This document shows positions 20,388 through 41,281 of a stretch of DNA of 45,481 bases, in pieces. The notes below the pieces were generated by a model, which had not been told where the DNA came from, searched no databases, and saw only the letters and a program-made list of their open reading frames with translations. The translations under genes were made by a program, and so were the position numbers. This DNA is from Hydrogenophaga sp. (lineage in GTDB: Bacteria; Pseudomonadota; Gammaproteobacteria; Burkholderiales; Burkholderiaceae_C). Position 1 is the stretch's first letter, and every line of letters begins with the position of its first letter. The stretch covers positions 1 through 45,481 of the forward strand of contig JALORL010000005.1 in NCBI GenBank assembly GCA_025458915.1, in the 5' to 3' direction.

Positions 20388-20478
20388 GGGCACGTCCTTT
20401 GGCTTTGGGGGGGTGTGTAGCGCAAGTGTAGGGGTCTTCGAGCGTTGGAATGACTTGTCAAATGGGGCAATTCGGGGC

Positions 20479-20835
20479 TTATTCAACAGGCTCACTCAGG
20501 CACTGGAGCGGATGGCCGGCACCCCTGGCCGCCTGCAGCACCTGGTCAACCTTGGTGGAAGCCACATCCCGGGAATACACCCCACAGATGCCTTTGCCCT
20601 CCAGGTGGATCTTGAGCATGATCTGGGTAGCGGTTTCCCGGTCCTTGCCAAAGTATTCCTGGATGACATGCACCACGAATTCCATTGGGGTGAAGTCGTC
20701 GTTGAGCAGAACCACCTGAAACATCTGAGGTGGCTGGGTGCGCTGAGTCCGCCGCTCGAGCACAACGGCGTCGTCGCTCCCCACGCTGGGTGGGACTGCT
20801 GGGGTCTCTGGCTTTTTGGGATTCTGGGTGGCCAT
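20479..20835 (-). CDS. clpS: ATP-dependent Clp protease adapter ClpS
   Basis: ClpS is the N-recognin that hands N-end-rule substrates to ClpA. I chose ATG 20835 ([12 protein letters not shown]), three codons inside the tracked ORF. The 118-residue protein has an unstructured Pro-rich N-terminus, then the folded domain with '[62 protein letters not shown]', including the conserved NDD(F/Y)T motif. It is followed by clpA after 91 bp, the normal order. What normally lies upstream (a cold-shock gene in several relatives) is replaced here by island DNA. Confidence 0.96.
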
Positions 20836-20955
20836 GCAAATCATTCTAGCGGCGTGGATGCGGCCGCAGCGGACATCCGGGATAGGCCTTTGCCCACATG
20901 GGGCTGACCGGCGAAGAACGGCGACAACCGGGGACCGGCACCGCCATCCCCAACG

Positions 20956-20988: not shown

Positions 20989-21294
20989 CTCAACAGAAAC
21001 AGGGGATACGCTTTTCCAGAGAAGAAAAGCCCACCTAACCCAAAACGTTTACATGTTTTCGATCATGAGGCCTCAATCGGTTGCAGCACGCCGCAGGCTG
21101 TGGCACGGCGTTGCGCTGGCGTCGCTCCATGGGGCCAATCATGGAGCCATCGCCGGCCGCAGCTGCAGCTCATTCGCTCTGCTTCGCTCCAAAACGCTGC
21201 GCCCCCAACGAGTACACCAGGCACCCCACGCGTGGAGGCGCCCGCCCACGCCAAAAGCGGTTCTACGGAGCCATTTCGGGCAGCGCATCCATGC
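20989..21294. other. Non-coding boundary between core chromosome and island
   Basis: I see no gene here. A 7-bp hairpin (GCTTTTC..GAAAAGC, 21010-21030) lies at the left. The 166-residue minus-strand ORF that crosses this stretch is a shadow that runs into abiEii in another frame. The island edge probably falls in this stretch; no duplicated attachment site could be seen. Confidence 0.4.
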
Positions 21295-22251
21295 TCACTC
21301 CGCTCTGAAGGCCGGTGGAGCATCATCGTTTGGCTCGACGCTGGCAAACCGAGCAGCCAACAGATCGGCCTGCTCGGCAAACTTCTTCGCATTGGTCTTC
21401 CGCAACTGCGCCAGGTTCTGCAACTTCCATCGCACGCCCGGCAGATGTTCGAGGTGGTCGATGCCCAGCCGTGCCCACTCGGGTGTACCGGCAACCAGCG
21501 AGAGCAGAAAAAGCCGTTCCTCCTCGTCCAGTCCCAACTGGATCTCGTGCACCAGGCGCTCACGGGCGGCGAGCAATGCCTCCAACGGCACCGGCTCCGC
21601 CGTCATGCCATGAAAGTTGTGCGTGAAGTCGTACTGGATGTCACGCAGCGGAGGGAACAGCATCTCGTGCACTGGACGGTTGCTGCTGGCCAGGTAGACG
21701 ACGAAGGCGCGCCGGATGCCGGGCGTGATGCCTTCGTGCGAAAAAAGCTGCATCACGTCGAACAGGTCGCGGGGATGCTGCCGATCCAGCGCCGCCACCA
21801 GCTTGCCGCCGTAAACGTCTTCCAGCGAGACCACCGGGATCTCCAGGTCGGCCATCAGCACATCACGCGCGGTCGGCGTGAGCGAGGCTTGACGCACCGG
21901 CAGCACGGTGCCCCGCATCACGAAATTCACTTCGATCTTGACCTGTACGGGTCCACGCCGCACCAACAGCTTGGTCTCCCCCTCTGCTGCCGCCGGCGCG
22001 TGCACCTGCAAGCCTTGTTTCTTCAAGCGCTCAGCCGCTTGCCGGATGGCCTCATTGATGCGAACCAGCGCTTCGTCACGTGGCAGCGTGTGGTCGGGAA
22101 AGACCAGATCAAGGTCCACCGACAGGCGCGGCATGTCGCGCACGAAGAGGTTGATCGCGGTTCCACCCTTCAGCGCCAACGTGTCGTCCACGAAAACCAG
22201 CGGCGCCACCTGCGTCAGCAGGCGCGCGGTATCAAGATAGGTCTGATTCAT
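21295..22251 (-). CDS. abiEii: AbiEii/AbiGii-type nucleotidyltransferase toxin
   Basis: This toxin of type IV-class AbiE toxin-antitoxin and abortive-infection systems has a nucleotidyltransferase fold; characterised relatives add nucleotides to tRNA acceptor ends. The 318-residue protein has the motif LALKGGTAINLFV, followed by the catalytic acidic pair in 'RLSVDLDLVFPDHT', and 'PVVSLEDVYGGKLVAALDRQHPRDLFDVMQLF', a conserved DUF1814 signature (KxxAxxxRxxxRDxxD). Length is normal. Its ATG overlaps the stop of the antitoxin gene upstream (ATGA), the standard abiEi-abiEii arrangement. It appears intact. Confidence 0.9.
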   Translation of the reverse strand: MNQTYLDTARLLTQVAPLVFVDDTLALKGGTAINLFVRDMPRLSVDLDLVFPDHTLPRDEALVRINEAIRQAAERLKKQGLQVHAPAAAEGETKLLVRRGPVQVKIEVNFVMRGTVLPVRQASLTPTARDVLMADLEIPVVSLEDVYGGKLVAALDRQHPRDLFDVMQLFSHEGITPGIRRAFVVYLASSNRPVHEMLFPPLRDIQYDFTHNFHGMTAEPVPLEALLAARERLVHEIQLGLDEEERLFLLSLVAGTPEWARLGIDHLEHLPGVRWKLQNLAQLRKTNAKKFAEQADLLAARFASVEPNDDAPPAFRAE

Positions 22252-22985
22252 CGTTTTAGCACCAGCAGGCCGTCGGCCGATCGGGACACCCAGGGCCGGT
22301 CGCTGCCCGTCGGTAACGTGGCCGGATCGAGCTTGGCTGCCCAGGGCAGCGATGCCTCGCGGCCGAGTTGCAGGCAGAGCCGTACGGTCTTGACGCTCGT
22401 GCAGCGCTGCAGCAGCTCGCGCAGCACGTCGACACGCAGGCTGTAGGTACTTTCCACGAGCTCGCGCGCCTCCTGCAACGGCTGGCGGACGCCGACGTCG
22501 CTCAGCAACTCCAGCAGTGCGCGCTCCGGCGCCGATACCTGCGGCGCTCCGCTACGCTTCTCGAACGGCCCGGCGTGCAGCAAGGCGCCAGGCTGCTCAT
22601 CGAAGAGCCGCTTGCGGTGGTACTCGGCCGGAAAGCGCTCGGTGAACCATTCGGGCAGGCGCCCGGCCGCCCAGCCATAGAGCTGCAGCACCGGCTGCTG
22701 CGCCACATACTGGCGCACGCCATACCAGTCCAGCGCCGACTTGCCGCCTACGTGCAAGCCTTTGAGGCGACGCTGCAGCAGGGTTAGGCTCGGATGCAGC
22801 GCTAGGGTGTCGTTGGGCCGGCAGAAAACCCCGCGAGCCAAGCGCGTGAGCCAGCCCGCGCGCACATAGTGCACGGCCAGATCCGCAGAGATGCCCAACG
22901 CCGCCAGGTCTTCCGAGGTCAGCGGCATCCCCGGCGGCAGGCGGGTATAGAGCGCATTTAGTTTGCTCGTTCCAGTCGTAGCCAT
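22248..22985 (-). CDS. abiEi: AbiEi-type antitoxin with winged-helix DNA-binding domain
   Basis: AbiEi antitoxins repress their own promoter through an N-terminal helix-turn-helix domain and counter AbiEii. The 245-residue product starts at ATG 22985 (MATTGTSKLNALYTRLPPGMPLTSEDLAALGIS); the tracked TTG four codons earlier is less likely. The winged-helix part includes 'SADLAVHYVRAGWLTRLARGVFCRPND'. The C-terminal part carries 'LQRRLKGLHVGGKSALDWYGVRQYV', 'ERALLELLSDV' and 'VKTVRLCLQLGREASLPW', typical of AbiEi_3-like antitoxins. It precedes and overlaps the toxin gene. Inverted repeats lie directly upstream. Confidence 0.88.
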   Translation of the reverse strand: MATTGTSKLNALYTRLPPGMPLTSEDLAALGISADLAVHYVRAGWLTRLARGVFCRPNDTLALHPSLTLLQRRLKGLHVGGKSALDWYGVRQYVAQQPVLQLYGWAAGRLPEWFTERFPAEYHRKRLFDEQPGALLHAGPFEKRSGAPQVSAPERALLELLSDVGVRQPLQEARELVESTYSLRVDVLRELLQRCTSVKTVRLCLQLGREASLPWAAKLDPATLPTGSDRPWVSRSADGLLVLKR

Positions 22986-22990
22986 ACTGC

Positions 22991-23042
22991 GATTCAAACA
23001 CTTTATTCAAACTTCAGTCAACTTGAAATGTGATTTTGAATC
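22991..23042 (-). promoter_or_regulatory. Inverted repeats in the abiE promoter region, candidate AbiEi operator
   Basis: GATTCAAA at 22991-22998 and TTTGAATC at 23035-23042 are perfect inverted copies, with an inner TTCAA..TTGAA pair between. The block is AT-rich and directly precedes abiEi. Known AbiEi proteins bind inverted repeats at their own promoter, so this is a candidate autoregulatory site; binding is inferred. Confidence 0.55.
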
Positions 23043-23340: not shown

Positions 23341-23589
23341 GTGCTGACAACAAACACGGCAGCAGAACTGTTTCGGCACCTGAGCGCGGACAAAGCCGTG
23401 CTCTACCGCAGCATCATGGACGTATTCGCCGCAGCCAAGCGGCAGTACCGCCTCCAGCTGCGGCCAGACGAGGTCCTCGCTGAAGCCAACTGGCCAGGTT
23501 CACCACCGCGCCTTGAAGAAGTGAGCATCGCCCTGGCACAACTGGCCGCGTGGGGCAACCTCGAATCCCAGCCCGACACCGCGTGTTGA
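23341..23589 (+). pseudogene. N-terminal fragment of a DUF2397 protein (JetA of type III Wadjet)
   Basis: The GTG at 23341 has GGGGGAG eight bases upstream and opens 82 codons. These read as the N-terminus of the DUF2397/TIGR02677 family: 'ELFRHLSADKAVLYRSIMDVFAAAKRQYRLQLRPDEVLAEANWP' and 'ALAQLAAWGNLESQPDTA'. Full-length members are several hundred residues and continue after PDT(A/S)R with a VTTVEDFYRAR-like motif; here the frame ends in CysStop just at that point. DUF2397 belongs to the four-gene TIGR02677-02680 locus, described as type III Wadjet anti-plasmid defence. The other three genes are not present. The rest was evidently removed by the recombination that joined the RepA fragment. 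Confidence 0.78.
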
Positions 23590-24140
23590 TGCGCGCGCGG
23601 CCCTACGAGATCCTGCGCTTCATCGGGCGCGGCGTGTCGCTGCGCGACTACCAGCGCCTCAAGGCTGCGCTCGATCGCCTGCAGTCCACCACCGTGGCCA
23701 CGTCCATCCGAGAGACCACCGGGCGGCGCCTGCACCGCTTTTCCTGGATCAACGAATGGAAGGAGCTGGCCGATGCCCACGGCACGCCGCTGGGCATCGA
23801 GCTGATCTTGCCGGACTGGTTCTATGCGGGCGTGCTGGACGCGGCCCTGGTGCTCACCATCGACCCGGCCTACTTCGACCTCACCGGAGGCATCGAGCGC
23901 TGGCTATACCGCCTGGTACGCAAGCACGGCGGTCACCAGCCTGGTGGCTGGCAGTTCGACTTCAAGCACCTGCACCGCAAGTCCGGCAGCACCGCCAAGC
24001 CACACGACTTCGCCTGCGACCTGCGCGCCCTGGTGGCTCGGCAGTCCATGCCCGGCTACCGCCTGGGCATCGTGCGCATGCCGGGCACGGGTGCAGAGGT
24101 ACTGACGTTCCGACCGGTGCCACCCACGGCACGGGGATAA
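23589..24140 (+). pseudogene. repA: C-terminal part of a RepA-type replication initiator
   Basis: The frame from ATG 23589 encodes 183 residues that match the second half of the RepA initiators found in Tn4371-like ICEs and broad-host plasmids: 'YEILRFIGRGVSLRDYQRLKAALDRLQSTTVATSI', 'HRFSWINEWKE', 'LPDWFYAGVLDAALVLTIDPAYFDLTGGIERWLYRLVRKHGG' and 'PGYRLGIVRMPGTGAEVLTFRPVPP'. Complete proteins have roughly 100-120 further residues at the N-terminus. The joint with the DUF2397 fragment is within a few bases of 23580-23595. It could still be translated from the internal ATG, but it is unlikely to be a functional initiator alone. Confidence 0.78.
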
Positions 24141-24384: not shown

Positions 24385-25000
24385 GTGATCCTGGCCCTGC
24401 TCAACCAGAAAGGCGGCGTGGGCAAGACCACGCTGGCCACCCACATCGCGGGCGAGCTCGCGCTGCGCGGTCAGCAGGTGGTGCTGCTCGATGCCGATCC
24501 GCAAGGCTCGGCACTGGACTGGACCCAGCGCCGCAGCCAGCAGGGCCTGCCCCGGCTTTTCAGCGCCGTGGGCCTGGCACGCGAGACCCTGCACCAGGAA
24601 GCGCCCGAACTGGCCCGGCGGGTCGATCACGTTGTCATCGACGGCCCGCCGCGCATCGCGGCGCTGGCGCGCTCCGCGTTGCTGGCGGCCGACCGCGTGG
24701 TCATCCCGGTGCAGCCCAGCCCCTACGACCTGTGGGCCAGCGCCGAAATGGTGGCGCTGATCCGGGAAGCCCAGGTCTTCCGCCCGGCGCTGCGCGCGGC
24801 CTTTGCCATCAACCGGCGCGTCAGCACCACCGTGATCGGCCGAGCAGCCGCTGCCCGCGCTGCGCTCGGAGGTGCACCAGCGCATCGTGTTCGCCGACAG
24901 CGTGGCCGCCGGCCGGCTGGCCTGCGAAACCGCACCCGACAGCGCTGCCGCACGCGAGGTGACCGCCCTGGTCGATGAACTGCTGCGGTGGCCGTCATGA
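24385..25000 (+). pseudogene. parA: ParA-family partition ATPase, frameshifted by a small deletion
   Basis: The GTG at 24385 has GGAAGGGA upstream and starts VILALLNQKGGVGKTTLATHIAGELALRG, the deviant Walker A of ParA. It continues with 'VVLLDADPQGSALDW', 'VVIDGPPRIAALARSALLAADRVVIPVQPSPYD' and 'AFAINRRVSTTVIG'. After that the tracked frame turns into an Arg/Ala-rich shadow. The expected C-terminus (EQPLPALRSEVHQRIVFADSVAAGRL..., to WPS) is in another frame from 24842 and ends at 25000. Family members have about eight more residues at the joint. A 23-nt deletion, perhaps between two GGCC(G) repeats, would give exactly this. The C-terminal stop overlaps the next ATG, showing that the original gene ended there. 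Confidence 0.82.
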
Positions 25001-25269
25001 CTGCGGAACACCCGTCGCGTGGCAAACGCATCGCCATCGGCGCACGCCCACCCGCCAACCCGCAGGCCGATGCCTGGGTGCGCCAGGGTGATGGCGAGGC
25101 GCTGCAGAAAGGCGATCTGTTCACCGCCCGCCTTACGCTGGATGTGACGCCCGCCATGCGCGCACGCATCAAGGTTTCGGCGTTCACCCAGGGCACCACC
25201 GTGGCCGAACTGCTGCGCGCCCTGCTGGAGCGCGAATTCCCGGAATCCCGTCCAGAGACATCCCCATGA
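24997..25269 (+). CDS. Small ribbon-helix-helix-type protein, partner of ParA
   Basis: The ATG at 24997 overlaps the original parA stop (ATGA) and gives 90 residues. The N-terminal half is flexible; the C-terminal half 'FTARLTLDVTPAMRARIKVSAFTQGTTVAELLRALLEREFPE' has the strand-helix-helix pattern of ribbon-helix-helix proteins. In Tn4371-like elements a small gene of this kind stands between parA and the DUF2840 gene and is often called ParB-like. The function as a centromere-binding partner is inferred from position. Confidence 0.7.
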   Translation: MTAEHPSRGKRIAIGARPPANPQADAWVRQGDGEALQKGDLFTARLTLDVTPAMRARIKVSAFTQGTTVAELLRALLEREFPESRPETSP

Positions 25270-25847
25270 ACATGCACACCACGCCCGATGGCACGGTTGC
25301 GCCCAGCGCAGCACATTCACCGCGGCTGCAGCCTCTTCCGCTGCAATACAGCCCGGCAGGAACCCCGCCGCTGACCCGCGTCTCGCTGGCCTACGTCCAC
25401 CTGCGCTTCAACCTCTATCTGCGCTTTGGGCAACCCGAACGTACCTTGCAACTCGACCACTGGCGGCGCTGTGCGATCTTCAAACCGTCGGCCGTTTTCT
25501 GCCGCGTGCGCTGGCAGGCCAACGACCACGGCACGACGCTGTGGCAGTTGATGGTGCTGCAGGCCGGCACGCCGCTGGACACCTTGCAGAGCCTGCCTGG
25601 CGTACGCCCTGGCGCGCGCCTGTTGCTGAACGCCGAAGGCGAACTCAAGGTACGCGCCGTGCTGCAGCAGATCGACGCCATCGAGGCCCAGGGCATCGAC
25701 GCCTGCACCGTCGCCGCCGCGTACTGGGGCACGCTGGGAAACCGTCTTGCGGTCTGGACTGCTGGGCCGTCGGCCACTCCGCTGCAACTGCCGGCATATG
25801 GTGCCGACCGCCACGCCGCAGCGCTGGCCACGAGGGGCGCGTCATGA
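25266..25847 (+). CDS. DUF2840 domain protein of conjugative elements
   Basis: The 193-residue protein matches the DUF2840 family: 'TRVSLAYVHLRFNLYLRFGQPERTLQLDHWRRCAIFKPSAVFCRVRWQANDHGTTLWQLMVLQA', 'PLPGVRPGARLLL'-like and 'GIDACTVAAAYWGTLGNRLAVW'. DUF2840 genes are nearly always found between parA and traF in Tn4371-like ICEs. The function is unknown; the tight overlaps (4 bp with both neighbours) imply coordinated expression with TraF. Confidence 0.82.
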   Translation: MNMHTTPDGTVAPSAAHSPRLQPLPLQYSPAGTPPLTRVSLAYVHLRFNLYLRFGQPERTLQLDHWRRCAIFKPSAVFCRVRWQANDHGTTLWQLMVLQAGTPLDTLQSLPGVRPGARLLLNAEGELKVRAVLQQIDAIEAQGIDACTVAAAYWGTLGNRLAVWTAGPSATPLQLPAYGADRHAAALATRGAS

Positions 25848-26407
25848 GCCGCTCGCGTGCTTCCATCCTTGCACTCGGCTGCACAGCAGCCGTCGCATTG
25901 GCTGCACTCGCGTGGGCCTCGTTCGCAAAGCCCTTGCCGCGCCTGGTCTACAACCCATCTGACAGCGTGCCCGTGGGCTGGTACCGCGTCGATCCGATGC
26001 TGCAACAACCAGCGTCTGACACCACACCGAAGTCCGCACCGCTGCAGGTCGGCAGCATCGTGCTTGTCCGCCTTCCAGCCCACGCCGCTGCACTGGCCGC
26101 GCAGCGCGGCTACCTGCCGCTGCAGGTTCCGTTGCTCAAACGCGTGGGCGCTGTGGCGCCACAACGCGTGTGCACCATTGGCCGGACCTTGCGCATCGAC
26201 GGCAACTTCGTGACCACCATGTTGCGCGCGGACCGCCTGGGTCGCCCTCTGCACGGCTGGCCGCAATGCCGCCGCTTGCGGGCTGGCGAAATCTTCCTGC
26301 TTAGCGTGACGAACCCGGCCTCGTTCGACAGCCGCTATTTCGGGCCGGTGCGCAGCGCCGATGTCATCGGCAGCGCGCACCTCTTGTGGTTGGAGGGCCA
26401 GCCATGA
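25844..26407 (+). CDS. traF: TraF-type S26 signal peptidase / conjugal pilin maturation protease
   Basis: The 187-residue membrane-anchored protein is of the S26C family. ATG 25844 overlaps the DUF2840 stop. The N-terminal transmembrane anchor (ILALGCTAAVALAALAWASFA) is followed by 'LVYNPSDSVPVGWYRV', which holds the catalytic Ser motif region (N-x-S-x-S-x-P-x-G-W). Later come 'PLLKRVGAVAPQRVCTIG' with the Lys general base, and 'PLHGWPQCRRLRAGEIFLLS', 'SFDSRYFGPVRSADVIG', which are diagnostic of TraF. In IncP plasmids TraF matures and cyclises pilin. All key segments appear intact, but no pilin gene is in the window. Confidence 0.88.
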   Translation: MSRSRASILALGCTAAVALAALAWASFAKPLPRLVYNPSDSVPVGWYRVDPMLQQPASDTTPKSAPLQVGSIVLVRLPAHAAALAAQRGYLPLQVPLLKRVGAVAPQRVCTIGRTLRIDGNFVTTMLRADRLGRPLHGWPQCRRLRAGEIFLLSVTNPASFDSRYFGPVRSADVIGSAHLLWLEGQP

Positions 26408-26682
26408 CGGCCGCGCGACGGCAGTCGCCGCAGCCGCCAGTGCATCGCCTCACCTTGCCCGCCGGCCCGGTGGACGGCACAGGTGCAGGGGGGAAAATGC
26501 AGGGCAAGATAAAAGGAGGCGGCACCTACGGGCCGCAAACGCCCGTCTGCACAAGGGCCTGGCGCAGCACGCGCCAGGTGGCGGCACGGTGCTGCGCCCG
26601 TGCCCAAACCCGCGCCGCGACGGCCTCGGCCACGTGCCTTGCACGTCGCACTGCGCCAAGGCTAGGTAGGGGCCACCAATGA
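26404..26682 (+). CDS. Small hypothetical ORF between traF and the relaxase gene; doubtful
   Basis: An ATG overlapping the traF stop (ATGA) opens 92 codons that reach into the relaxase start. The product is rich in Arg/Ala/Thr with no recognisable domain, and its second half looks like a shadow reading. In related elements a lytic transglycosylase often stands here; it is absent. The stretch may instead be non-coding and hold the transfer origin next to the relaxase gene. Confidence 0.3.
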   Translation: MTAARRQSPQPPVHRLTLPAGPVDGTGAGGKMQGKIKGGGTYGPQTPVCTRAWRSTRQVAARCCARAQTRAATASATCLARRTAPRLGRGHQ

Positions 26683-28697
26683 GCCGCAAGGACGAAGACC
26701 GCTTCCGCCCCGAGCCGGGCAAGCCGGGCCGAAGCGGCGAGCGTTTCATCAGCAAGGTGCTTCAGCAGGCCGGCAAGGCGGGCGCCAAGGCACTTTCCAA
26801 GCCTTGGGCGCGTGCGCCTGGCATGGCCGGGCAACAGCCCGGCGCGCGCCTGGGGCGGGGCCACGTCGCGGCCCGCTTCGCCAGCCTGGGCCTGGGTGCC
26901 AAAGCGCGCCGCGTCGCCATCAAGGCGCGGCTGGTCAACCTTTCCAAGGCGGGTGCACGCTCCACCGGCACCCACCTGCGCTACATCGAGCGCGAGGGTG
27001 TCAACCGCCAGGGCGGCCCGGGTCAGGCCTACGGGCCCGCCAGCGACGCCGCTGACCTTGACGCCTTCCGCGAACGCGGGCAGGACGATCGCCACCAGTT
27101 CCGGTTCATCGTCTCGCCCGAAGACGCCGAGCAACTCCACGATCTGCGCACCTACACCCGCCACCTGATGCAGCGCATGGAGGCCGACCTGGGCACCCGC
27201 CTCGATTGGGTGGCCGTGGACCACTGGAACACCGATAACCCGCACACCCATCTGGTGCTGCGCGGAAAGGACGAACGCGGTAAAGACCTCATCATTGCCC
27301 GTGACTACATCGCTCATGGCATGCGCGAGCGCGCAGCGGCTCTGGCAACCGAATGGCTGGGGCCCCGCACCGAGCTGGAGATCCGCCAGGCCCAGGTCCG
27401 CGAAATCACCCAGGAACGCTGGACCAGCCTGGACCGCACCCTGCAGCGCGAAGCCACCGAAGGCCAGCTCACACCCGCCGCCCTCGCCCGCCCGCACCTT
27501 CAGTCACAGCGCCAACTGCTGGTGGGCCGCCTGCAACAGCTGCAACGCATGGACTTGGCAAGTGAATCTCCGCCCGGCACCTGGACACTAGAGCCCACCG
27601 CCGAACCCACGCTGCGCGCCCTGGGCGATCGGGGCGACATCATCCGCACCATGCAACGCGCCATGGGCGGCCAGCAGCGCGAGCTGGCCATCCACACCAG
27701 CGGTCTGACTCCCAGACAGACCGATCCCGTTCGCCCGACCATTGTGGGCCGCGTGGCCGCCAAGGGTCTCGCCGACGAGCTCTACGAAAAGGGCTACCTG
27801 ATCATCGACGGCACCGACGGCAAAGCGCACTACGTCCCCTTGCCCGCACGCGCCGAGTTGGAACAGTTCCCGCTGGGCGCCATCGTCGAAGCCAATCCGC
27901 TTGACGCACCCCGGGCCGTGGACCGCCGCATCAGCGAGCAGACCCAGGCCGGCCTGTACCGGAGTGACCAGCACCTCGACGCCTTGCAACGGCAGGGCCA
28001 CGGCGAAAGCGAAGCAGCCGAGCAGGTCAAGACCCATCTGCGCCGGCTCGAAGCCCTGCGCCGAGCTGGCATCGTTGAACGCCTGGCCGAGGGGGTGTGG
28101 CGCGTGCCGTCCGACCTGTCCGAACTCGGCCGCCAGTTCGACGCGCAAGGCCAGGGCGGCCCAAGCGGCGCACTCTCCGTCACGCTCAAGTGCCACCTGC
28201 CCCTTCAGCAGCAAACCCGGGTGATCGGCGCCACATGGCTGGACCAGCAACTCATCAACGGCGAGCGCGGCGCTGTCGGTGCAAGCGCGCCGGCCAACCT
28301 GGGCTTCGGTGGCGAAGCAAAAGCCGCCCTGCGCCAGCGGGCTGCGTTTCTGGTGGAGCAAGGCCTGGCCGAGATACAAGGCGGGCGTACCTTGCTCGCG
28401 CGCAACCTGCTAGCCACCTTGCGCAACCGCGATCTTGCCGCTGCGGCGCAACGCATCGTTTCGGAAACCGGCCGTGCCCATCGCCGGCTCGCCGATGGTC
28501 AATCAGCACGAGGCGTTTTCCGGGAAGCGTTGCAACTGGCCAGTGGCCGCTACGCCGTGGTGGACGATGGCGTGGGCTTCAGCTTGGTGCCTTGGCGCCC
28601 GGTGCTGGAGTCCCGCCTGGGTCAGCAAGTCACCGCCACCATGCGTGGCGGTATCGCCAACTTTGAGTGGCAGCGTTCGCGCGGGCTCGGACATTGA
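26679..28697 (+). CDS. DUF3363/VirD2-like conjugative relaxase (RlxS type)
   Basis: The relaxase nicks oriT and pilots the strand in conjugation. The 672-residue protein starts at ATG 26679 with a TAGGGG site before it. The basic N-terminus contains 'RGHVAARFASLGLGAKARRVAIKARLVNLSKAGARSTGTHLRYIEREGV'. The relaxase core has 'HQFRFIVSPEDAEQLHDLRTYTRHLMQRME' and the metal-binding HUH-type motif VDHWNTDNPHTHLVLRGKD, with 'DYIAHGMRERA' and 'GPRTELEI'. The DUF3363 part (from about residue 270) has 'GRVAAKGLADELYEKGYLIIDGTDGKAHYVPL' and the C-terminal 'RYAVVDDGVGFSLVPWRPVLE'. It seems full length. traR, traG and the trb genes that normally follow are missing. Confidence 0.9.
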   Translation: MSRKDEDRFRPEPGKPGRSGERFISKVLQQAGKAGAKALSKPWARAPGMAGQQPGARLGRGHVAARFASLGLGAKARRVAIKARLVNLSKAGARSTGTHLRYIEREGVNRQGGPGQAYGPASDAADLDAFRERGQDDRHQFRFIVSPEDAEQLHDLRTYTRHLMQRMEADLGTRLDWVAVDHWNTDNPHTHLVLRGKDERGKDLIIARDYIAHGMRERAAALATEWLGPRTELEIRQAQVREITQERWTSLDRTLQREATEGQLTPAALARPHLQSQRQLLVGRLQQLQRMDLASESPPGTWTLEPTAEPTLRALGDRGDIIRTMQRAMGGQQRELAIHTSGLTPRQTDPVRPTIVGRVAAKGLADELYEKGYLIIDGTDGKAHYVPLPARAELEQFPLGAIVEANPLDAPRAVDRRISEQTQAGLYRSDQHLDALQRQGHGESEAAEQVKTHLRRLEALRRAGIVERLAEGVWRVPSDLSELGRQFDAQGQGGPSGALSVTLKCHLPLQQQTRVIGATWLDQQLINGERGAVGASAPANLGFGGEAKAALRQRAAFLVEQGLAEIQGGRTLLARNLLATLRNRDLAAAAQRIVSETGRAHRRLADGQSARGVFREALQLASGRYAVVDDGVGFSLVPWRPVLESRLGQQVTATMRGGIANFEWQRSRGLGH

Positions 28698-29445: not shown

Positions 29446-29559
29446 CACCCAACGCCGCCGGCGTCAGGTGTCTTTACATGGCGATCTCCTGGCGGAGGTG
29501 AGGTTCCGCCCACCGCCGTGCGTCTACACCAACAAGAGCAAACCATTTGCCGCAACCCC

Positions 29560-30876
29560 ATGCCCACCACCCCGCCCTCGTCCAGCCCTGATCGAACCGA
29601 AGCCGCCGTACAAGGCCGAGGCGCAAGCGTTGCCGCTGACCAGAGGGCCGCAGAAAGCGCCGACGAGCGCGAGTTCGACGCCTTCGCCCAGCACCAGGAC
29701 CCGCTGGACATCGTCGCCGCCACCTGGGTCACCCGCAGGCGCAGCGGCCTGGGCCCCGAGGGCGAAGCCGAGCTGCAAGCCTGGCTGGACGCCGACCCGC
29801 GCAACGCCCAGGCCTTCGACGACATGGACGCCACCTTCGGCGAGGTGCAGCAACTGCCCGACGACGACGTCGCCCAGCTCCGCGCTGGCTTGCCGGATCA
29901 GGATGCAGCCCGCCACGCCACCCCAGCCGGGACCGCGCAGCCACAGGCGCAACGCCCGAAGCAAGAGCCACCCCTCACGGGCTGGGACACTGCCCTGTCG
30001 GGCCTGAACGGGCTGCTGGGTCTGATCCGCCCCCTCTTGCCCCAGGCGGCCGCCGCCGCCATCGCATTTGCCATGGTGGGTGGTGGCTGGATGGGCTGGA
30101 GCCACTGGCAGCGACAACCCGTGTTCGAGCAGGCCTACACCACCGAGCGCGGTCAGCAGCTCAAAGCCACCTTGCCGGATGCAGCACCCCAGACCGCCGA
30201 GCGAGACGCCGCCTTGGGCAGCACCCTGCAACTCGACACCGCCACCCAGACCCAGGTGCGCCTGTACCGCGACCGGCGCGAGGTACACCTGCAAAGCGGC
30301 CAGGCCATGTTTGCGGTGCACAGCGACCCGCAGCGCCCCTTCCACGTCTACGCCGGGGCACTGCGCATCACAGTGGTGGGCACCCGGTTCTCGGTCAGGC
30401 ACACCGGCACAGGGCTTGACGCGGGCCAGACGGTGGTGGCAGTGGAAGAAGGCCGGGTACGCGTCGAAAAACGGCGGACAGGCGCCAATGACCCTGACGA
30501 CACCGAAGCATCGACAAACCTCGCGGCGTCAACCGGTGCGCCCACAGACCAGCCCGTCGAGCTGACCGCTGGCCAGACCGTGCTGGCCGACGCCCGGGGC
30601 CACATTGGCCCAGTGGCCTCCCTGGCCGCCCACACCATCGCCCCCTGGCGCGATGGCCGCCTCAGCTTCGACCAGACCCCGCTGGCCCAGGCCATTGCCG
30701 AGTTCGAGCGCTACGGCCGCACCGGCCTGGTGGTGCGCGACCCCGCCGTGGCCGCCCTGCCTGTGGGCGGCAGCTACAGCCTGCAGCAGTGGCAGCGGTT
30801 TGCCGAAACGCTGCCCCAGGTGCTGCCCGTGCGCCTGGTGCGGCGCGGCGAGGTCACCGAAGTGGTGGCGCGGTAG
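29560..30876 (+). CDS. FecR-like transmembrane anti-sigma/signal transducer, copy 1
   Basis: FecR senses the occupied receptor via the receptor's STN domain in the periplasm and controls FecI in the cytosol. The 438-residue product starts at ATG 29560; the same leader (GTGCGTCTACA...) stands before the second fecR start. The N-terminal cytosolic anti-sigma part has the FecR signature WVTRRRSGLGPEGEAELQAWLDADPRNAQAFDDMD. A transmembrane helix lies near residues 150-170 (AAAAIAFAMVGGGWMGWSHW). The periplasmic FecR domain shows 'VRLYRDRREVHLQSGQAMFAVHSDPQRPFHVYAGALRITVVGTRFSVRHT'. A C-terminal STN-like segment is 'PLAQAIAEFERYGRTGLVVRD'. Its 3' end overlaps the convergent parE by 23 bp. Confidence 0.88.
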   Translation: MPTTPPSSSPDRTEAAVQGRGASVAADQRAAESADEREFDAFAQHQDPLDIVAATWVTRRRSGLGPEGEAELQAWLDADPRNAQAFDDMDATFGEVQQLPDDDVAQLRAGLPDQDAARHATPAGTAQPQAQRPKQEPPLTGWDTALSGLNGLLGLIRPLLPQAAAAAIAFAMVGGGWMGWSHWQRQPVFEQAYTTERGQQLKATLPDAAPQTAERDAALGSTLQLDTATQTQVRLYRDRREVHLQSGQAMFAVHSDPQRPFHVYAGALRITVVGTRFSVRHTGTGLDAGQTVVAVEEGRVRVEKRRTGANDPDDTEASTNLAASTGAPTDQPVELTAGQTVLADARGHIGPVASLAAHTIAPWRDGRLSFDQTPLAQAIAEFERYGRTGLVVRDPAVAALPVGGSYSLQQWQRFAETLPQVLPVRLVRRGEVTEVVAR

Positions 30877-31207
30877 GTGCCCCAGCAGGAGGTTCGCCGA
30901 AAAAGTCCTCCCGAAAGCGAGAGATCTGGTGCATGCGCTCGTGAAGAATGGTCACGATGCCGATGTCGCCGCTGGACAAGCGCCGCCAATACACCAAGTG
31001 CCGTTCGTATCTGAAGAAGAAGCCTTCGACGCCGAACTCAGCCGGCACCGGCCGGGACGCCACCCCGTGTGCCTCGATGCGTTCAAACGCGTCGAACAAC
31101 CCGGTGATGTAGCGGTTTGCTTGCGCTTCTCCCCAGCGCTCGCGCGTGTAGCGGTAAATCTCATCGAGGCGCCAAGAAGCCGCCTCCTGAACGCGCACAG
31201 CGGCCAT
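30854..31207 (-). CDS. parE: RelE/ParE-family toxin
   Basis: The 117-residue toxin has the ParE fold signature: 'VQEAASWRLDEIYRYTRERWGEAQANRYITGLFDAFERIEAHGVASRPVPAEFGVEGFFFRYERHLVYWRR', ending in 'IGIVTILHERMHQISRFREDF'. ParE toxins poison DNA gyrase, while RelE cleave mRNA; the closer similarity to ParE is judged from the 'HxVYWR' and 'ILHERM' segments. It lies three bases after the antitoxin gene, and its end runs into the end of fecR from the other side. The pair sits unusually between fecR and the receptor gene. Confidence 0.85.
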   Translation of the reverse strand: MAAVRVQEAASWRLDEIYRYTRERWGEAQANRYITGLFDAFERIEAHGVASRPVPAEFGVEGFFFRYERHLVYWRRLSSGDIGIVTILHERMHQISRFREDFFGEPPAGAPTAPPLR

Positions 31208-31210
31208 TCT

Positions 31211-31471
31211 TCAGGCGCCCGGCGCGTTGCGGGCAATCACATCCGCCGCAGTCAAGGGCTGATAGGCCGACTCGGGTGCGGCAAAGGCATGCGCCAGCTC
31301 CGCCTTCAGGCGGTCAAACGCCTGCTGCTCCTTGCGCTCCATGTCACGCCGGATCAGATCGCGCACGTACTCGCTGACGTTTTCGTAGGCACCGTCTTGC
31401 TGCACGTTGGCCGCCACAAACTCGCTCAGCGTCGGGTTCAGGCGAACGGTCATAGTCGTGGTCTGTGACAT
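31211..31471 (-). CDS. parD: ParD-type ribbon-helix-helix antitoxin
   Basis: The 86-residue antitoxin has an N-terminal ribbon-helix-helix domain (TTTMTVRLNPTLSEFVAANVQQDGAYENVSEYVRDLIRRDMERKEQQAFDRLKAEL) typical of ParD/CopG, and a flexible C-terminal part that should wrap the toxin. It precedes the toxin gene by three bases in the normal antitoxin-first order and should repress its own promoter in the 270-bp interval before the receptor. Confidence 0.86.
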   Translation of the reverse strand: MSQTTTMTVRLNPTLSEFVAANVQQDGAYENVSEYVRDLIRRDMERKEQQAFDRLKAELAHAFAAPESAYQPLTAADVIARNAPGA

Positions 31472-31599
31472 GGCATGCTTCGGGAAAGACTTGATGTATT
31501 CAATTTAACCAATATAGAAGACAACTGCAAGAGGCCGTAGCCGCATCCGCATGCCACGCGCCGCCGCAAGTTCGCGGAAGTGCTGGTGCAGCGGGGCGA

Positions 31600-31640
31600 T
31601 CTGGGTCGCAGAGAAATTTTTGAAGAATTCTCATTTGCAA
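31600..31640 (+). promoter_or_regulatory. Candidate iron-regulated promoter element before receptor 1
   Basis: GAGAAATTTTTGAAG followed by AATTCTCATTT contains a GAGAA...TTCTC palindrome and the string ATTCTCATTT. The second receptor gene has ATTCTTATTT shortly before its start. Similar strings occur in Fur boxes and in promoters used by iron-starvation sigma factors. The site is about 105 bp before the ATG; the remaining 31472-31599 shows nothing else I recognise. Confidence 0.4.
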
Positions 31641-31741
31641 CGTGAGGATCGCGCAGGGGGTCTGCGTCTCCATCGGTAGGAGGGTTGGCGCGTGTTGCGC
31701 CGGCCCGGCACATCCGCAACCGACCGAGGAGTTTTTGACCC

Positions 31742-34141
31742 ATGCGACCCGCGCAACCCGCCGCGCTGCACCAGCGCTTCACCCCTGCACCCCTCGCCTT
31801 GGCCGCCGCCATGGCCATCGCGATGGCCGCCGGTCACGCCCCGCTGGCGCATGCACAAAGTGGCGCCCCGACTGCGGCCGCCACACCCATTGCCATCAAC
31901 ATCCCGGCGCAGCCGCTGGGGCAGGCGCTGAACGAGCTGGCACGGCAGGCGAATTTGCAGATGACGTTTCCAGCTTCCTTGGTTGCGGGGAAGCAGGCCC
32001 CGGCAGTGTCGGGGCAGCTGACGGTGCGACAGGCGCTGGATCGGCTGCTGACTGGCGGGGAACTGCTGGCCAACGTCGATGGGGCGGCGGTAGTGGTTAG
32101 GGCGGCCGCACAAGTTCAACCAGAGGCAACCCTGCCGGCAGTAACTGTTTCTGCTCGCCGGCAAGAACTTGAGACTGTTGTTGTCCGTAAATCAACCGGT
32201 GGCGCACTGTTTGGTGAAGCTGACACGCGCGAGATTCCGTTTGCCGTAAACATCGTGGGTGAGCCGGAAATCAGAAACCGTCAAGCCACGACGCTCGCTG
32301 AGATGCTCGCTACCGATCCCTCCATCGGGTTTGAGTACCAAGACGCAGGGGGGATGCCATTTGATCGCCTCAGTATCCGGGGTTTCACTCAGAGCAACCA
32401 GATCATCAACGGACAACTTACCGGCCTCGATGTTATTGCCGCACAAGCGGAAAACGTTGACCGCGTCGAGGCCCTGCGAGGGCCGGCGGCTTTCCGTTAC
32501 GGTTTCGTGCAAGCGGGGGGCGTCATCAACACCGTTACCAAACGGCCAACCGACGACGCTAAAACGACGCTCACCTTGCAGGGCGCAGCAGCCAGCCAAC
32601 TGGGTGCTCATCTTGACCACAGCAGTCACTTTGACAATGAGAAGCGCTTTGGATATCGCCTGAATGCGGTTTTCTCAGATGGGGACACAGCCATCGACAC
32701 AACGCAGCGGCGACGCAGTCTTCTGTCATTCGCTACCGATTTCAAGTTGACGGACGACCTGACACTCTACGCCGACCTGACACACTCCGATATCAAGGCG
32801 CGGGGAGGAAATTCGTTCTTCCCCAACATTCAGATCGCGAGCGATGGGCGGGCACTTGACCCAATCAACCCACGGCGGACATTTCAGCCCGATTGGAATT
32901 TTTTCGATGGCGAATCGCTTACCGGAGGCTTGGAAATCGAGTACAAGCTAGCTCCCCAGTGGCAGTTCAATTCAATGTTTCGCTACCTCGACGCAACTGA
33001 TCGCGGTTACGGTGGCGTGACTTTCTACAACGCCTTTCAGCCCAACGGAGACCACGTTCTGTCCAACTATGGGTATAAAAACAAGTATGACACTTGGTCG
33101 AGCGTGAGCTTTGTTCAAGGGCAGTTATCTACTGGCGCCGTATCGCACAAACTGACCGCAGGCATCAGTTATTTGAACAACGATTATGACGGTTTTCAGG
33201 CAGCGAACAGCAATACCGTGAGCGTGCCAAGCAATATTTATGCTCCTGTAATCCTGCCTAAAACCGATGCCGGGCCTTATGCCCCAAGTTCTGCAGCACG
33301 CGAAAAACAGTCGGGCGCCTTTGTTTCGAATGAAATGAGGATAGGCCAATGGCGACCGCTCATCGGCCTACGCTATTCGAAGCTAGAGTACGACGCGACC
33401 TGGAATTCCGGGAAGAGCAATACCAGTAAGGTTTCCCCCATGCTGGCCCTGAGCTATGACGTCAATGATGCCATCACGCTCTACAGCAGTTATTCAACCG
33501 GGCTGGAAAACGGTGGCCTAGCACCCTTGGGCACTACCAATGCCAATGCGCAAATGCCCCCACTGGTTTCCAAAGGCTATGAGTTTGGTGTCAAGACGGA
33601 TCTGCTCGATGGTGCAGCCACCCTTGACGCCTCAATCTTCAGCGTCGAAAAAACTTCGGCTTTCACGGATTCGTCCAACACCTTTGTGCAGAAAGGTAAT
33701 CAAGTGCACAAAGGCGTTGAAGTTATGGCGCGGGGTCGTTTCTGGAAACCTTTGGAAGTGAGTGCCGGTTTCACTTACATCGATGCCAAATTGAAGGATG
33801 ATCCCGCCACGGACGGTAATCGCCCAGTGAACGTACCTCGCTTGAGTACGGTACTTTTTGGTGAGTACGCAGTTGCTTCGCTGCCTGGCCTTTACCTATC
33901 AGGTCAGGTTACATACCGGAGTGCCCGAGACTACAACTTGCCGAATAAGAACCAAGTACCTGGATACACGTTACTTGGTTTGGGTGGCCGTTATGTCACT
34001 ACGTTAAATGGACAAAAGAGCACATTCCGCATCAACGTCGACAACCTGACTAACGAGGCTTATTACAAGATGATTGATACGTTCGGCGGCACCCTTGGCG
34101 CGCCTATGACGATCAAGGCTTCACTAGAGCTCGCGTTCTAA
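31742..34141 (+). CDS. TonB-dependent siderophore receptor 1 with STN signalling domain (mosaic)
   Basis: This outer-membrane ferric-siderophore transporter has 799 residues, with ATG 31742 after GAGGAG. Order: signal peptide to about residue 38 (HAPLAHAQS); STN domain 50-115 (IPAQPLGQALNELARQANLQMTFPASLVAGKQAPAVSGQLTVRQALDRLL); TonB box near 'LETVVVR'; plug 140-270 with 'AENVDRVEALRGPAAFRYGFVQAGGVINTVTKRPT'; 22-strand barrel ending 'TIKASLELAF'. The STN domain implies signalling to FecR. The specific siderophore is unknown. From about 32100 to 34200 the DNA is plainly less GC-rich than the STN part, so plug and barrel look imported. It continues into the DUF3649 gene 19 bp later. Confidence 0.9.
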   Translation: MRPAQPAALHQRFTPAPLALAAAMAIAMAAGHAPLAHAQSGAPTAAATPIAINIPAQPLGQALNELARQANLQMTFPASLVAGKQAPAVSGQLTVRQALDRLLTGGELLANVDGAAVVVRAAAQVQPEATLPAVTVSARRQELETVVVRKSTGGALFGEADTREIPFAVNIVGEPEIRNRQATTLAEMLATDPSIGFEYQDAGGMPFDRLSIRGFTQSNQIINGQLTGLDVIAAQAENVDRVEALRGPAAFRYGFVQAGGVINTVTKRPTDDAKTTLTLQGAAASQLGAHLDHSSHFDNEKRFGYRLNAVFSDGDTAIDTTQRRRSLLSFATDFKLTDDLTLYADLTHSDIKARGGNSFFPNIQIASDGRALDPINPRRTFQPDWNFFDGESLTGGLEIEYKLAPQWQFNSMFRYLDATDRGYGGVTFYNAFQPNGDHVLSNYGYKNKYDTWSSVSFVQGQLSTGAVSHKLTAGISYLNNDYDGFQAANSNTVSVPSNIYAPVILPKTDAGPYAPSSAAREKQSGAFVSNEMRIGQWRPLIGLRYSKLEYDATWNSGKSNTSKVSPMLALSYDVNDAITLYSSYSTGLENGGLAPLGTTNANAQMPPLVSKGYEFGVKTDLLDGAATLDASIFSVEKTSAFTDSSNTFVQKGNQVHKGVEVMARGRFWKPLEVSAGFTYIDAKLKDDPATDGNRPVNVPRLSTVLFGEYAVASLPGLYLSGQVTYRSARDYNLPNKNQVPGYTLLGLGGRYVTTLNGQKSTFRINVDNLTNEAYYKMIDTFGGTLGAPMTIKASLELAF

Positions 34142-34160
34142 CAATCGTTTGGAGGCGGAT

Positions 34161-34439
34161 ATGTTTCGACTATTTGTGCATAGTTTGCTTGGCTTGTCCG
34201 GCAGCTACGCCTTCACCTGGGGCTTGGTCGCCATCGGAGTCGCGAGTCTCGTGGCCCTGGACATTGACTACCACGAAGCCGAAGTGACGCTGATGCTGCT
34301 GGCTTTCCTGGTCTTCCTGCCGCTGTTCCTGTGGTCCTTCGCCTCGCCCCGCCAGGGGCGGGTGATGGCGCTGCTGTTCGGCGGCGCAGCGCTCATGACC
34401 TCAGCCGCCTGGGCCATCCAGCGCGCCGTGCTGGCCTGA
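34161..34439 (+). CDS. DUF3649 small membrane protein, iron-uptake associated
   Basis: The 92-residue protein starts at ATG 34161 (MFRLFVHSLLGLSGSYAFTWG) with GGAGG a few bases upstream; the tracked TTG is not needed. It has about three transmembrane helices (GLVAIGVASLVALDI, VTLMLLAFLVFLPLFLWSFA, VMALLFGGAALMTSAAWAI). Such genes regularly stand next to siderophore receptors and PepSY proteins and are annotated as iron-uptake proteins of unknown role. The first dozen codons share the lower-GC style of the receptor upstream; the rest is high-GC. Confidence 0.78.
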   Translation: MFRLFVHSLLGLSGSYAFTWGLVAIGVASLVALDIDYHEAEVTLMLLAFLVFLPLFLWSFASPRQGRVMALLFGGAALMTSAAWAIQRAVLA

Positions 34440-34476
34440 TCGACTCGGCATGACCCGACCCCACGGAGGCTCTTCA

Positions 34477-36198
34477 ATGTTTACCAACTTCCGCCAGGCC
34501 ATGACCTGGCTGCACACCTGGATGGGCCTGGTGCTGGGCTTCGTGCTCATGGTCTGCTTCTTCTTCGGCTCGCTCGCGGTGTTCGACCGCGAGATCGACC
34601 GCTGGGCGATTCCGCAGACCCGCTTCGAGCCGCAGCCCATGCCCTCGCTTGATCGCATGCTGCTGCCCATCCTGCAGCAGGTGCAGCCCGACGAGAAGGA
34701 CTACGCGGCCAACATGCCCACGCTGCACGACCCGGCCAAGGGCCCGATGACGCCGCGCCTGGAGCTGCCGGTGGACGAGTACTGGGCTTACACCACGCAC
34801 CGCGACCCGGTGCTGGCCATGGGCGTGGGCTTTGGGGTGCCGCTGGCCAAGAACCCCCAAGACCACAACCACATCTACGGCGACGTGACCATCGATCCGC
34901 GTTCTGGCGCACTCGTGCCCAACGACGCGCTCAAGATCGGCAGCCGCTGGTTCTACCCGATGCACATCCACCTGCACTGGACCTGGAAGGACATCGGCAT
35001 TTGGATCGTCGGCATCGCTGCCTTCACCATGCTGGTGGCGCTGGTCACTGGCGTGATCATGCACCGCAAGATCTTCCGCGAGTTCTTCACCTTCCGCCCC
35101 AAGAAGCACACCCAGCGTTCCACGCTGGACCTGCACAACCTCACCGGTGTGGTGGCCCTGCCCTTCCACTTCTTCTTCGCCTTCACCGGGCTCGTGATCT
35201 TAGCCAGCTACATCTACTTCCCCGTCAGCCACACGCTGCTCAAGCCCTTGCACCAGCAACACGAGGTGCAAGAGGCCAAGGCAACCGGCCTGCCGCACGA
35301 GCGCTCGGGTGTGGCCGCGCCGCTGTCCAGCGTCGATGCCATGGTCGCTGAGGCCAAGCGCCGCTGGGCTGCGCGCGACATGGCAGGTGAAGTGGGCTAC
35401 CTGCAGGTGCACCACGTGGGGGATGCCAACAGCTATGTGAGCATCTTCCGCGCCGGCAGCGACCGCGTGGCGCTGGTGGGCGAAGGCATCCACTTCAAGG
35501 CCAGCACGGGTGAGGTGCTGCGCGAGGACCCGCCGCGCACGGTGGTCAGCGAGATCAATGAGTTCCTCACCGGCCTGCACCTGCAGCACTTCGAGCACTG
35601 GCTGCTGCGCTGGCTGTACGTGTTGGGCGGACTGCTGGGCTGTGTGTGCATCGCCACCGGTTTCGTCTTCTTCGTGGAGAAGCGCAAGGCGGCGCACGCC
35701 AAGGCTGGCGGTCAGGGCAGCCGCGTGGTGGACGCACTGGCGGTGACCAGCGTCACCGGCATGGTGATCGCCGCCGTGGGCATGCTGGCGGTCAACCGGA
35801 TGTTGCCCGCCGACCTCGCCGGCAAAGGTGACTGGGAGAAGCTGGCCTTCTGGGGCATCTGGGTGCTGGCCATGCTGCAAGCCTTCGTGCGCAGCGCCCC
35901 TGTGGCGCAGGGCCGCATGAACCCGGCCTGGCGCGAGCATTGCTGGGCCATCGCCGGCCTGGCGGTTGCAGCGGTGGTGCTCAACGCCATCACCACGGGC
36001 GACCACCTGGTCAAGACGGTGTTCACCGACACCTACTGGCCGGTGGCTGGGGTGGACCTGAGCCTGCTGGCCACGGCGGGAATTGCCCTCTGGGCGGCGC
36101 GCAAGCTGGCACAGCGGGAGCGGGGTGTTACCGCCTCAAAGTCTGCCAAGACCGATCCCTCCGAGCCGAACGACTCCGCCGAGGTGGCCCATGTCTGA
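34477..36198 (+). CDS. PepSY-associated TM-helix protein, probable siderophore-iron reductase
   Basis: The 573-residue inner-membrane protein starts at ATG 34477 (MFTNFRQAMTWLHTWMGLVLGF) after GGAGG at seven bases; the tracked ATG 34450 lacks an RBS. N-terminal helix with His (WLHTWMGLVLGFVLMVCFFFGSLAVF), periplasmic PepSY-like part, 'MHIHLHWTWKDIGIWIVGIAAFTMLVALVTGVIMHRKIF', 'TLDLHNLTGVVALPFHFFFAFTGLVIL' and 'LHLQHFEHWLLRWLYVLGGLLGCVCIATGFVFFVEKRK' follow. Paired histidines in helices suggest b-type haem, as in family members proposed to reduce ferric siderophores. Further helices at the end. It overlaps the DUF3325 gene by 8 bp. Confidence 0.85.
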   Translation: MFTNFRQAMTWLHTWMGLVLGFVLMVCFFFGSLAVFDREIDRWAIPQTRFEPQPMPSLDRMLLPILQQVQPDEKDYAANMPTLHDPAKGPMTPRLELPVDEYWAYTTHRDPVLAMGVGFGVPLAKNPQDHNHIYGDVTIDPRSGALVPNDALKIGSRWFYPMHIHLHWTWKDIGIWIVGIAAFTMLVALVTGVIMHRKIFREFFTFRPKKHTQRSTLDLHNLTGVVALPFHFFFAFTGLVILASYIYFPVSHTLLKPLHQQHEVQEAKATGLPHERSGVAAPLSSVDAMVAEAKRRWAARDMAGEVGYLQVHHVGDANSYVSIFRAGSDRVALVGEGIHFKASTGEVLREDPPRTVVSEINEFLTGLHLQHFEHWLLRWLYVLGGLLGCVCIATGFVFFVEKRKAAHAKAGGQGSRVVDALAVTSVTGMVIAAVGMLAVNRMLPADLAGKGDWEKLAFWGIWVLAMLQAFVRSAPVAQGRMNPAWREHCWAIAGLAVAAVVLNAITTGDHLVKTVFTDTYWPVAGVDLSLLATAGIALWAARKLAQRERGVTASKSAKTDPSEPNDSAEVAHV

Positions 36199-36523
36199 GG
36201 CGCTGTGGCTCACCGCAGCGGCCGCGCTGAGCCTGGCCGGCATGGGCTGGCTGGCGCTGGCCATGGAGGTGCACTGGGGGCAGGTGATGCACCGCCCGGC
36301 CGAGGCGGCTGCGCGCACCCGGCGGGTGCTGCGCGCCCTGGGCGTGCTGGCCCTGCCGCTGTCGCTGCTGGCCTGCCTGATGGCCGACCGCCCATCCATG
36401 GCGATGCTTGTCTGGGTGATGCTGCTCGCTGGCAGCGCCCTCGCCATCGCCATGACGCTAGCCCGCCGCCCTGAAGTGATGCGCGCCTTGTGGCCTGTTG
36501 ATTCCGCAGCGCAAACGCATTGA
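36191..36523 (+). CDS. DUF3325 small membrane protein
   Basis: The 110-residue protein starts at ATG 36191 (MSEALWLTAAAALSLAGMGWLALAMEVHWGQVMH), inside the PepSY stop region. Three predicted transmembrane helices: N-terminal, 'VLRALGVLALPLSLLACLMAD' and 'MAMLVWVMLLAGSALAIAMTLA'. DUF3325 genes accompany PepSY and DUF3649 genes in iron clusters; function unknown. The overlap suggests that the three make one membrane complex. Confidence 0.78.
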   Translation: MSEALWLTAAAALSLAGMGWLALAMEVHWGQVMHRPAEAAARTRRVLRALGVLALPLSLLACLMADRPSMAMLVWVMLLAGSALAIAMTLARRPEVMRALWPVDSAAQTH

Positions 36524-36594
36524 TCAACCTGTGTTTTTTCGGCGGCCGTGCGTCTTCATAGGGGAGAACATGATTTCGCTTCCCGCGCCCTGTC

Positions 36595-37401: not shown

Positions 37402-37433
37402 CGCCTCACATCCATAGATCTGGAGTTGAACTC

Positions 37434-38180: not shown

Positions 38181-38182
38181 CC

Positions 38183-38596: not shown

Positions 38597-38597
38597 G

Positions 38598-39107: not shown

Positions 39108-39177
39108 GCGCCCGCGGAGTCGCGGTCAGGCGTGCTCGGCCCAATCTCAGCAGGATGGAGACCACACCAGCCAGTCC

Positions 39178-39828: not shown

Positions 39829-39951
39829 CGAAGCTGCCCCAGCAGCCGCTCACGGATCTGTTCAAGCGATACGCACCACCGGGTAGCGGTCAACATCGAC
39901 CTCAAGCGTTCAGTCGCTTGTGCGTCTACAAGAACAACACCGCCTCTCGTC

Positions 39952-41163: not shown

Positions 41164-41281
41164 GTGCCCGATAGCACAGGAACATCGCTAAAAAATTTGC
41201 CGCCGGCACCTCAACTGCTCGCACATTGGCGCGTCTTCATGGTGAGTGATTCTTATTTACTGACCTTGAGGAGCTGTTTTC

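What the first reader, a model, noticed from the sequence alone, without database searches (positions are those of the whole stretch)
23341..24140. Scar joining a type III Wadjet gene to a RepA fragment
The first 82 codons of DUF2397 (JetA, anti-plasmid defence) end within a few bases of where the C-terminal half of a plasmid-type replication initiator begins. Both partners are truncated at the joint. The remnant suggests that a plasmid/ICE core carried or sat beside a Wadjet locus, and that one deletion removed the rest of the defence genes together with the RepA N-terminus.
Basis: partly seen in the sequence, partly recalled or inferred. Interest (0 to 1): 0.6.

Follow-up and report, generated by a model that had tools for sequence, protein, structure and literature searches.

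The report
Deletion scar in a Wadjet-carrying ICE
A conjugative element in a Hydrogenophaga chromosome has lost one ~34-35 kb internal block, leaving the first 81 codons of an anti-plasmid defence gene joined to the back two-thirds of the element's replication gene; intact relatives show both genes in full, so this is a real but fairly ordinary decay scar.

Summary
Window 23341-23583 encodes residues 1-81 of DUF2397/JetA (TIGR02677 E 7e-21, PF09660 E 1e-19, PADLOC JetA E 2.5e-27). Three bases on, window 23586-24137 encodes RPA/RepA model positions 70-228 of 228. The main interpretation also holds. In three Hydrogenophaga relatives the same module (AbiEii-AbiEi-jetA; left-end DNA 91-96% identical) has an intact jetA, and an intact repA (97-98% aa) lies 33.6-35.5 kb downstream on the same contig and strand. 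One of them, G041, was followed end to end. It carries jetABCD inside a ~94 kb Tn4371-like ICE (rlxS, traG, trb) integrated at the 3' end of icd, with its integrase beside icd. The window's own genome has the same element: attL at 21050-21066, and an identical 17-nt attR with a full-length integrase on contig C163. A single ~35 kb internal deletion explains the joint. It removed jetBCD, most of jetA, radC, ParB-like and regulatory genes, and the RepA N-terminus. There is no IS at the joint and at most CGCG is shared. parA has a second, 23-bp frameshifting deletion, so the replication/partition module is dead. Corrections: 81 native codons, PADLOC type II (not type III), and jetABCD on the same element as repA rather than adjacent. 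An assembly chimera is not excluded without reads.

The parts
20479..20844 (-). clpS (with clpA at 18051-20495): chromosomal flank left of the element
   Evidence: PF02617 E 1.6e-33; conserved in nearly all genus genomes at 80-86%
21050..21066 (+). attL core TACATGTTTTCGATCAT = last codons of icd (isocitrate dehydrogenase) in reverse; left end of the ICE
   Evidence: homology between elements at different flanks starts here; same 17 nt at icd 3' end on own contig C163 near 23004; empty site in L100/L101
21295..22251 (-). AbiEii nucleotidyltransferase toxin (type IV TA), left-end cargo
   Evidence: PF08843 E 8e-44, PADLOC AbiEii E 2.6e-112; 82-97% nt to relatives
22248..22997 (-). AbiEi antitoxin/regulator, left-end cargo
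   Evidence: PF11459 E 4e-41, PF17194 E 4e-32, PADLOC AbiEi E 2e-67
23341..23583 (+). jetA (DUF2397) remnant: native codons 1-81 of ~500; stop TGA supplied by the joint at 23587-23589
23584..23586 (+). deletion joint; TGT matches neither intact parent; CGCG just before it occurs in both parents
23586..24140 (+). repA remnant: C-terminal 184 residues of the RPA/RepA initiator; first ~100 residues lost
   Evidence: PF10134 70-228/228; 98% aa identical to intact RepA in G041, G006, G038
24385..24978 (+). parA, frameshifted at codon 151 by a 23-bp deletion after 24837 (GGCCG repeats at the ends in relatives)
   Evidence: alignment with G041, G004, G038; NF041546 E 2e-62 for the part before
24988..25269 (+). 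small ParB-like/RHH gene of the partition module
   Evidence: weak PF23807; same position annotated as ParB in CP109756
25266..25847 (+). DUF2840 core gene of the Tn4371-type module
   Evidence: PF11000 E 1e-48
25844..26407 (+). TraF-like S26 peptidase
   Evidence: homology and position as in L010, 66%
26679..28697 (+). relaxase RlxS (DUF3363), open to its end
   Evidence: NF041267 E 1.7e-191, PF11843 E 2e-123
29518..43693 (+). accessory cargo: FecR, TonB-dependent receptor, PepSY, ExbB/ExbD, second FecR and TonB receptor (iron uptake)
   Evidence: Pfam

Best explanation
The window holds the left end of a Tn4371-like integrative and conjugative element inserted at the 3' end of icd, next to clpS, in a Hydrogenophaga genome. 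Its ancestor carried AbiE and a complete jetABCD Wadjet system at this end, then ~25 kb of variable and regulatory genes, then repA-parA-parB-DUF2840-traF-rlxS. One illegitimate (end-joining type) deletion of ~34-35 kb ran from jetA codon 81 to about repA codon 100. Wadjet and the element's own initiator were therefore lost together, leaving two dead gene ends back to back. A later or earlier 23-bp deletion also broke parA. att sites, integrase, relaxase and the trb/traG genes remain, so the element may still excise and transfer but can no longer make Wadjet or an intact RepA. Shown: gene identities, the truncations, the intact relatives, the att ends and the integrase. Inferred: one event, its mechanism, and the functional consequences.
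For: JetA and RepA fragments by HMM. Same left module in G004, G006, G038, G041 and Simplicispira at 91-96%. Intact repA 33.6-35.5 kb downstream of intact jetA, same strand, in three genomes. jetABCD identified in G041 by PADLOC and Pfam. Element limits in G041: att 231595 and icd 325965, integrase 324569-325897. Own attR identical over 17 nt, full-length integrase and trb/traG genes on C163. No jetBCD or other deleted-interval DNA elsewhere in the MAG, apart from one 366-bp match at 69%. No IS and no shared word over 7 nt near the joint, only CGCG at it. parA frameshift as an independent sign of decay.
Against: MAG of 355 contigs, 81% complete, and no reads to test the joint. Exact joint not seen in any other record. 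The element is a mosaic: repA region 91-95%, rlxS ~64% nt to these relatives, so the true parent is not in hand and the exact amount lost is unknown.
Confidence: 0.85

Rival explanations
1. Assembly chimera: two pieces of the same or different ICEs were joined wrongly in the metagenome assembly.
For: The record is a fragmented MAG, the joint occurs in no other record, and the element spans at least two contigs.
Against: Only CGCG is shared at the joint, too little for a k-mer join. The missing parts are not found elsewhere in the MAG. Order and strand are those expected from one element. An independent parA lesion shows decay.
Confidence: 0.08
2. The joint arose by recombination between two elements (tandem ICEs at icd, or a Wadjet island plus a separate ICE) instead of a deletion inside one element.
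For: Elements with the same integrase and AbiE-Wadjet end but no repA exist (Simplicispira, ~27 kb). Identity differs between left end and core.
Against: Single elements with jetA and repA in the right order and strand already exist in three genomes, so no second element is needed.
Confidence: 0.06
3. The fused fragments are kept for a function: the JetA N-terminal piece as an inhibitor of incoming Wadjet, or the RepA C-terminal piece translated through the TGATG overlap.
For: Both fragments are open, and the jetA stop TGA overlaps an ATG of the repA frame (sequence). RepA fragment 98% aa identical with 1 nonsynonymous against 3 synonymous window-only changes.
Against: Such short divergence carries no signal; 2 nonsynonymous against 1 synonymous in jetA'. 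parA beside it is frameshifted. No other record keeps the arrangement.
Confidence: 0.02

Closest known systems
Tn4371-family ICEs (PMC2789088)
   Same: RepA-ParA-ParB, DUF2840, TraF, RlxS and traG/trb modules in the same order; cargo between core blocks; RepA of the pVS1 type
   Different: Integrates at the 3' end of icd with a 17-nt att core and an Arm-DNA-bind_3 tyrosine integrase at the opposite (trb) end, not the 8-bp TTTTC/TA/GT site. That paper mentions elements with Tn4371-like stability/transfer regions but an unrelated integrase. This copy has lost the RepA N-terminus and the genes before it.
Wadjet (JetABCD), PADLOC type II (DUF2397/DUF2398/SMC-like/DUF2399)
   Same: Relatives of this element carry all four genes in order; the window keeps the first 81 codons of jetA
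   Different: No functional system is left in the window: jetB, jetC, jetD and ~84% of jetA are gone
Deletion derivatives of the same ICE, e.g. the ~27 kb element at icd in Simplicispira hankyongi (L014/L121)
   Same: Same att site, 96.5% identical integrase, AbiE-Wadjet left end, large internal deletion
   Different: There the Wadjet end was kept and repA, rlxS and traG were lost; here Wadjet and the RepA N-terminus were lost and the transfer genes kept

Membership tests
Wadjet (type II in PADLOC) | DUF2397 (JetA) homology | tested here: met
   but only the first 81 residues
Wadjet (type II in PADLOC) | complete jetABCD | tested here: not met
   absent from window and MAG; present in G041
Tn4371-like ICE | RepA/ParA/ParB-DUF2840-TraF-RlxS block | tested here: met
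   repA and parA are broken
Tn4371-like ICE | TraG and Trb mating-pair genes | tested here: met
   ORFs on own contig C163, recognised from sequence, colinear with G041 at 89%
Tn4371-like ICE | intTn4371 integrase and TTTTC/TA/GT att site | tested here: not met
   att is 17 nt at icd and the integrase sits at the trb end; sequence comparison with intTn4371 itself not made
Integrated element at icd | direct repeat at both ends, integrase beside one end, empty site in relatives | tested here: met
Active ICE | excision and transfer | not testable with these tools
   needs PCR for attP and mating

The most novel reading that the evidence does not exclude
An ICE that carries an anti-plasmid system active on circles below ~100 kb has to keep its own excised circle large or shielded. 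Loss of Wadjet together with RepA released that constraint and let the element shrink to roughly half its size, so the scar marks an evolutionary switch and not only decay.
Probability: 0.06. Interest if true: 0.6.

Novelty: new member of a known kind. Interest (0 to 1): 0.3.

Why it matters
It documents that a PADLOC type II Wadjet system travels on Tn4371-like ICEs that insert at icd, and that such elements shed Wadjet or their replication/transfer genes by large internal deletions. That gives a natural set of elements with and without Wadjet for asking how an anti-plasmid system lives with the circular stage of its own carrier. The scar itself is ordinary genome decay.

Tried and rejected
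I first read AbiE-jetA as a host defence island beside clpS into which an ICE had run. That was dropped when the module's left limit (21050) proved to be an att site at icd and intact relatives put jetA and repA on one element. An IS or transposon at the joint was rejected because no such gene or repeat is there. A strict size constraint (Wadjet only on large ICEs) is weakened by the ~27 kb Simplicispira element that keeps the AbiE-Wadjet end. The search for the exact joint in viral contigs and plasmids gave nothing. No paper in the library linked Wadjet with icd-site ICEs or used the term DUF2397 with Wadjet.

Full report
OBSERVATION. Window 23341-23583 reads as an 81-residue open frame with strong DUF2397/JetA matches limited to the N-terminal end of each model: PF09660 1-73/483, E 1.4e-19; TIGR02677 1-73/494, E 7e-21; PADLOC JetA 13-92/518, E 2.5e-27. 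It is 93-95% identical in protein to codons 1-81 of intact jetA genes. Window 23586-24137 matches RPA (PF10134) positions 70-228 of 228, E 1.5e-60, with the first 69 positions missing. The frames differ. jetA homology ends at 23583 and repA homology starts at 23587, with TGT between. The stop TGA of the jetA frame (23587-23589) overlaps an ATG of the repA frame.

THE INTACT STATE. The genus is Hydrogenophaga (record titles). Seven of 67 genus genomes, own included, have the jetA start; the six relatives have open frames of 539-567 aa. The block AbiEii-AbiEi-jetA (window 21051-23583, or from 21349/21353 on) is 91-96% identical in Hydrogenophaga, Simplicispira and Xylophilus loci. A search for RepA in the same genomes puts repA downstream of jetA on the same contig and strand: G041 jetA 233882 / repA 269391, G004 3303372 / 3337207, G006 286581 / 322343. 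In each, RepA is full length. Measured from the window's breakpoints, the missing stretch is 35.3, 33.6 and 35.5 kb in these relatives. In G041 it holds the rest of jetA, jetB (DUF2398), jetC (SMC-like), jetD (DUF3323/DUF2399), an XseA-like protein, a UvrD-type helicase, a ParB-domain protein, an RovC/DUF2285-type regulator and the RepA N-terminus. A RadC-like gene lies there too; it was recognised from its sequence in the G038 counterpart, not by an HMM.

THE ELEMENT. Comparing loci with different flanks shows the left limit at window 21050-21066, TACATGTTTTCGATCAT. In reverse this reads as the last codons of a gene that, in two loci lacking the element (L100, L101), is icd next to clpS. In G041 the same core lies at 231595 and again at the end of icd at 325965, with an integrase (Arm-DNA-bind_3, Phage_integrase) at 324569-325897 beside it: a ~94 kb ICE with rlxS and, by sequence and position, traG and trb genes. 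In the window's own genome, contig C163 carries traG, trb genes and a full-length integrase, then icd with an identical 17-nt core at 23004. It is colinear with G041 over 16 kb at 89%. So the window is the left end of the same kind of ICE, with at least ~47 kb left. Contigs between C324 and C163 may be missing.

THE JOINT. Parents: jetA ...CCCGACACCGCGCGCGTATCG; repA ...CCTCGCGGCTGATGCGCGCG; window ...CCCGACACCGCG-TGT-TGATGCGCGCG. CGCG is common to both, and the longest shared word in the neighbourhood is 7 nt and not at the joint. There is no IS and no repeat. This fits an end-joining type deletion and is too little for a k-mer assembly join. The deleted sequences are not elsewhere in the MAG apart from one 366-bp match at 69% identity, but the MAG is 81% complete.

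SECOND LESION. parA has a 23-bp deletion after 24837 with GGCCG at both ends in relatives; it shifts the frame at codon 151. RepA and ParA are thus both broken while relaxase, traG/trb and integrase frames remain. I infer that the element can no longer replicate or partition with its own RepA/ParA but may still excise and transfer. Neither was tested.

ALTERNATIVES. A chimeric contig cannot be ruled out without reads (8%). Recombination between two elements could give the same joint (6%); the Simplicispira element shows that Wadjet-bearing elements without repA exist. A kept function of either fragment is unlikely (2%).

KNOWN CONTEXT. The core matches the Tn4371 family scaffold (integrase; repA-parA-parB stability block; traG-trb transfer block) described in PMC2789088, which also mentions elements with these blocks but an unrelated integrase. 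Wadjet is known to act on circles below ~50-100 kb, and Wadjet operons are reported to coexist with or lie on plasmids (PMC10586767). Spontaneous deletion of jetABCD is on record in Clostridium cellulovorans (PMC12287153). PADLOC names this system JetA2-D2 (type II), so 'type III' is not supported here; naming schemes differ and I found no paper that settles it.

VERDICT. It is a clear example of ICE erosion, not a new system.

Noticed in passing
window 24837-24838: parA has a 23-bp deletion between GGCCG repeats that shifts the frame at codon 151; a second lesion in the replication/partition block.
   Followed up: yes
L014 5709 to L121 17553 (Simplicispira hankyongi): A ~27 kb element at icd keeps the AbiE-Wadjet end plus a 96.5% identical integrase, but has lost the stretch from the XseA region to trbE (repA, rlxS, traG): an independent internal deletion in the same ICE family.
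   Followed up: partly
G006:C11 211678-233461 (L098, L122): In G006 icd and clpS are 22 kb apart with an insert that holds a stretch 67-80% identical to the window's FecR/TonB cargo in inverted orientation; the AbiE-Wadjet ICE sits on another contig.
   Followed up: no
window 29518-43693 and L118 259-7245: The element carries a long iron-uptake cargo: two FecR/TonB-receptor pairs, PepSY proteins and ExbB/ExbD by Pfam, plus imelysin-like proteins on C163 recognised from sequence only.
   Followed up: partly
L106 16327-18060 (G041): An exonuclease VII large-subunit-like protein with a DUF5710 domain lies downstream of jetD in the intact ICE.
   Followed up: no
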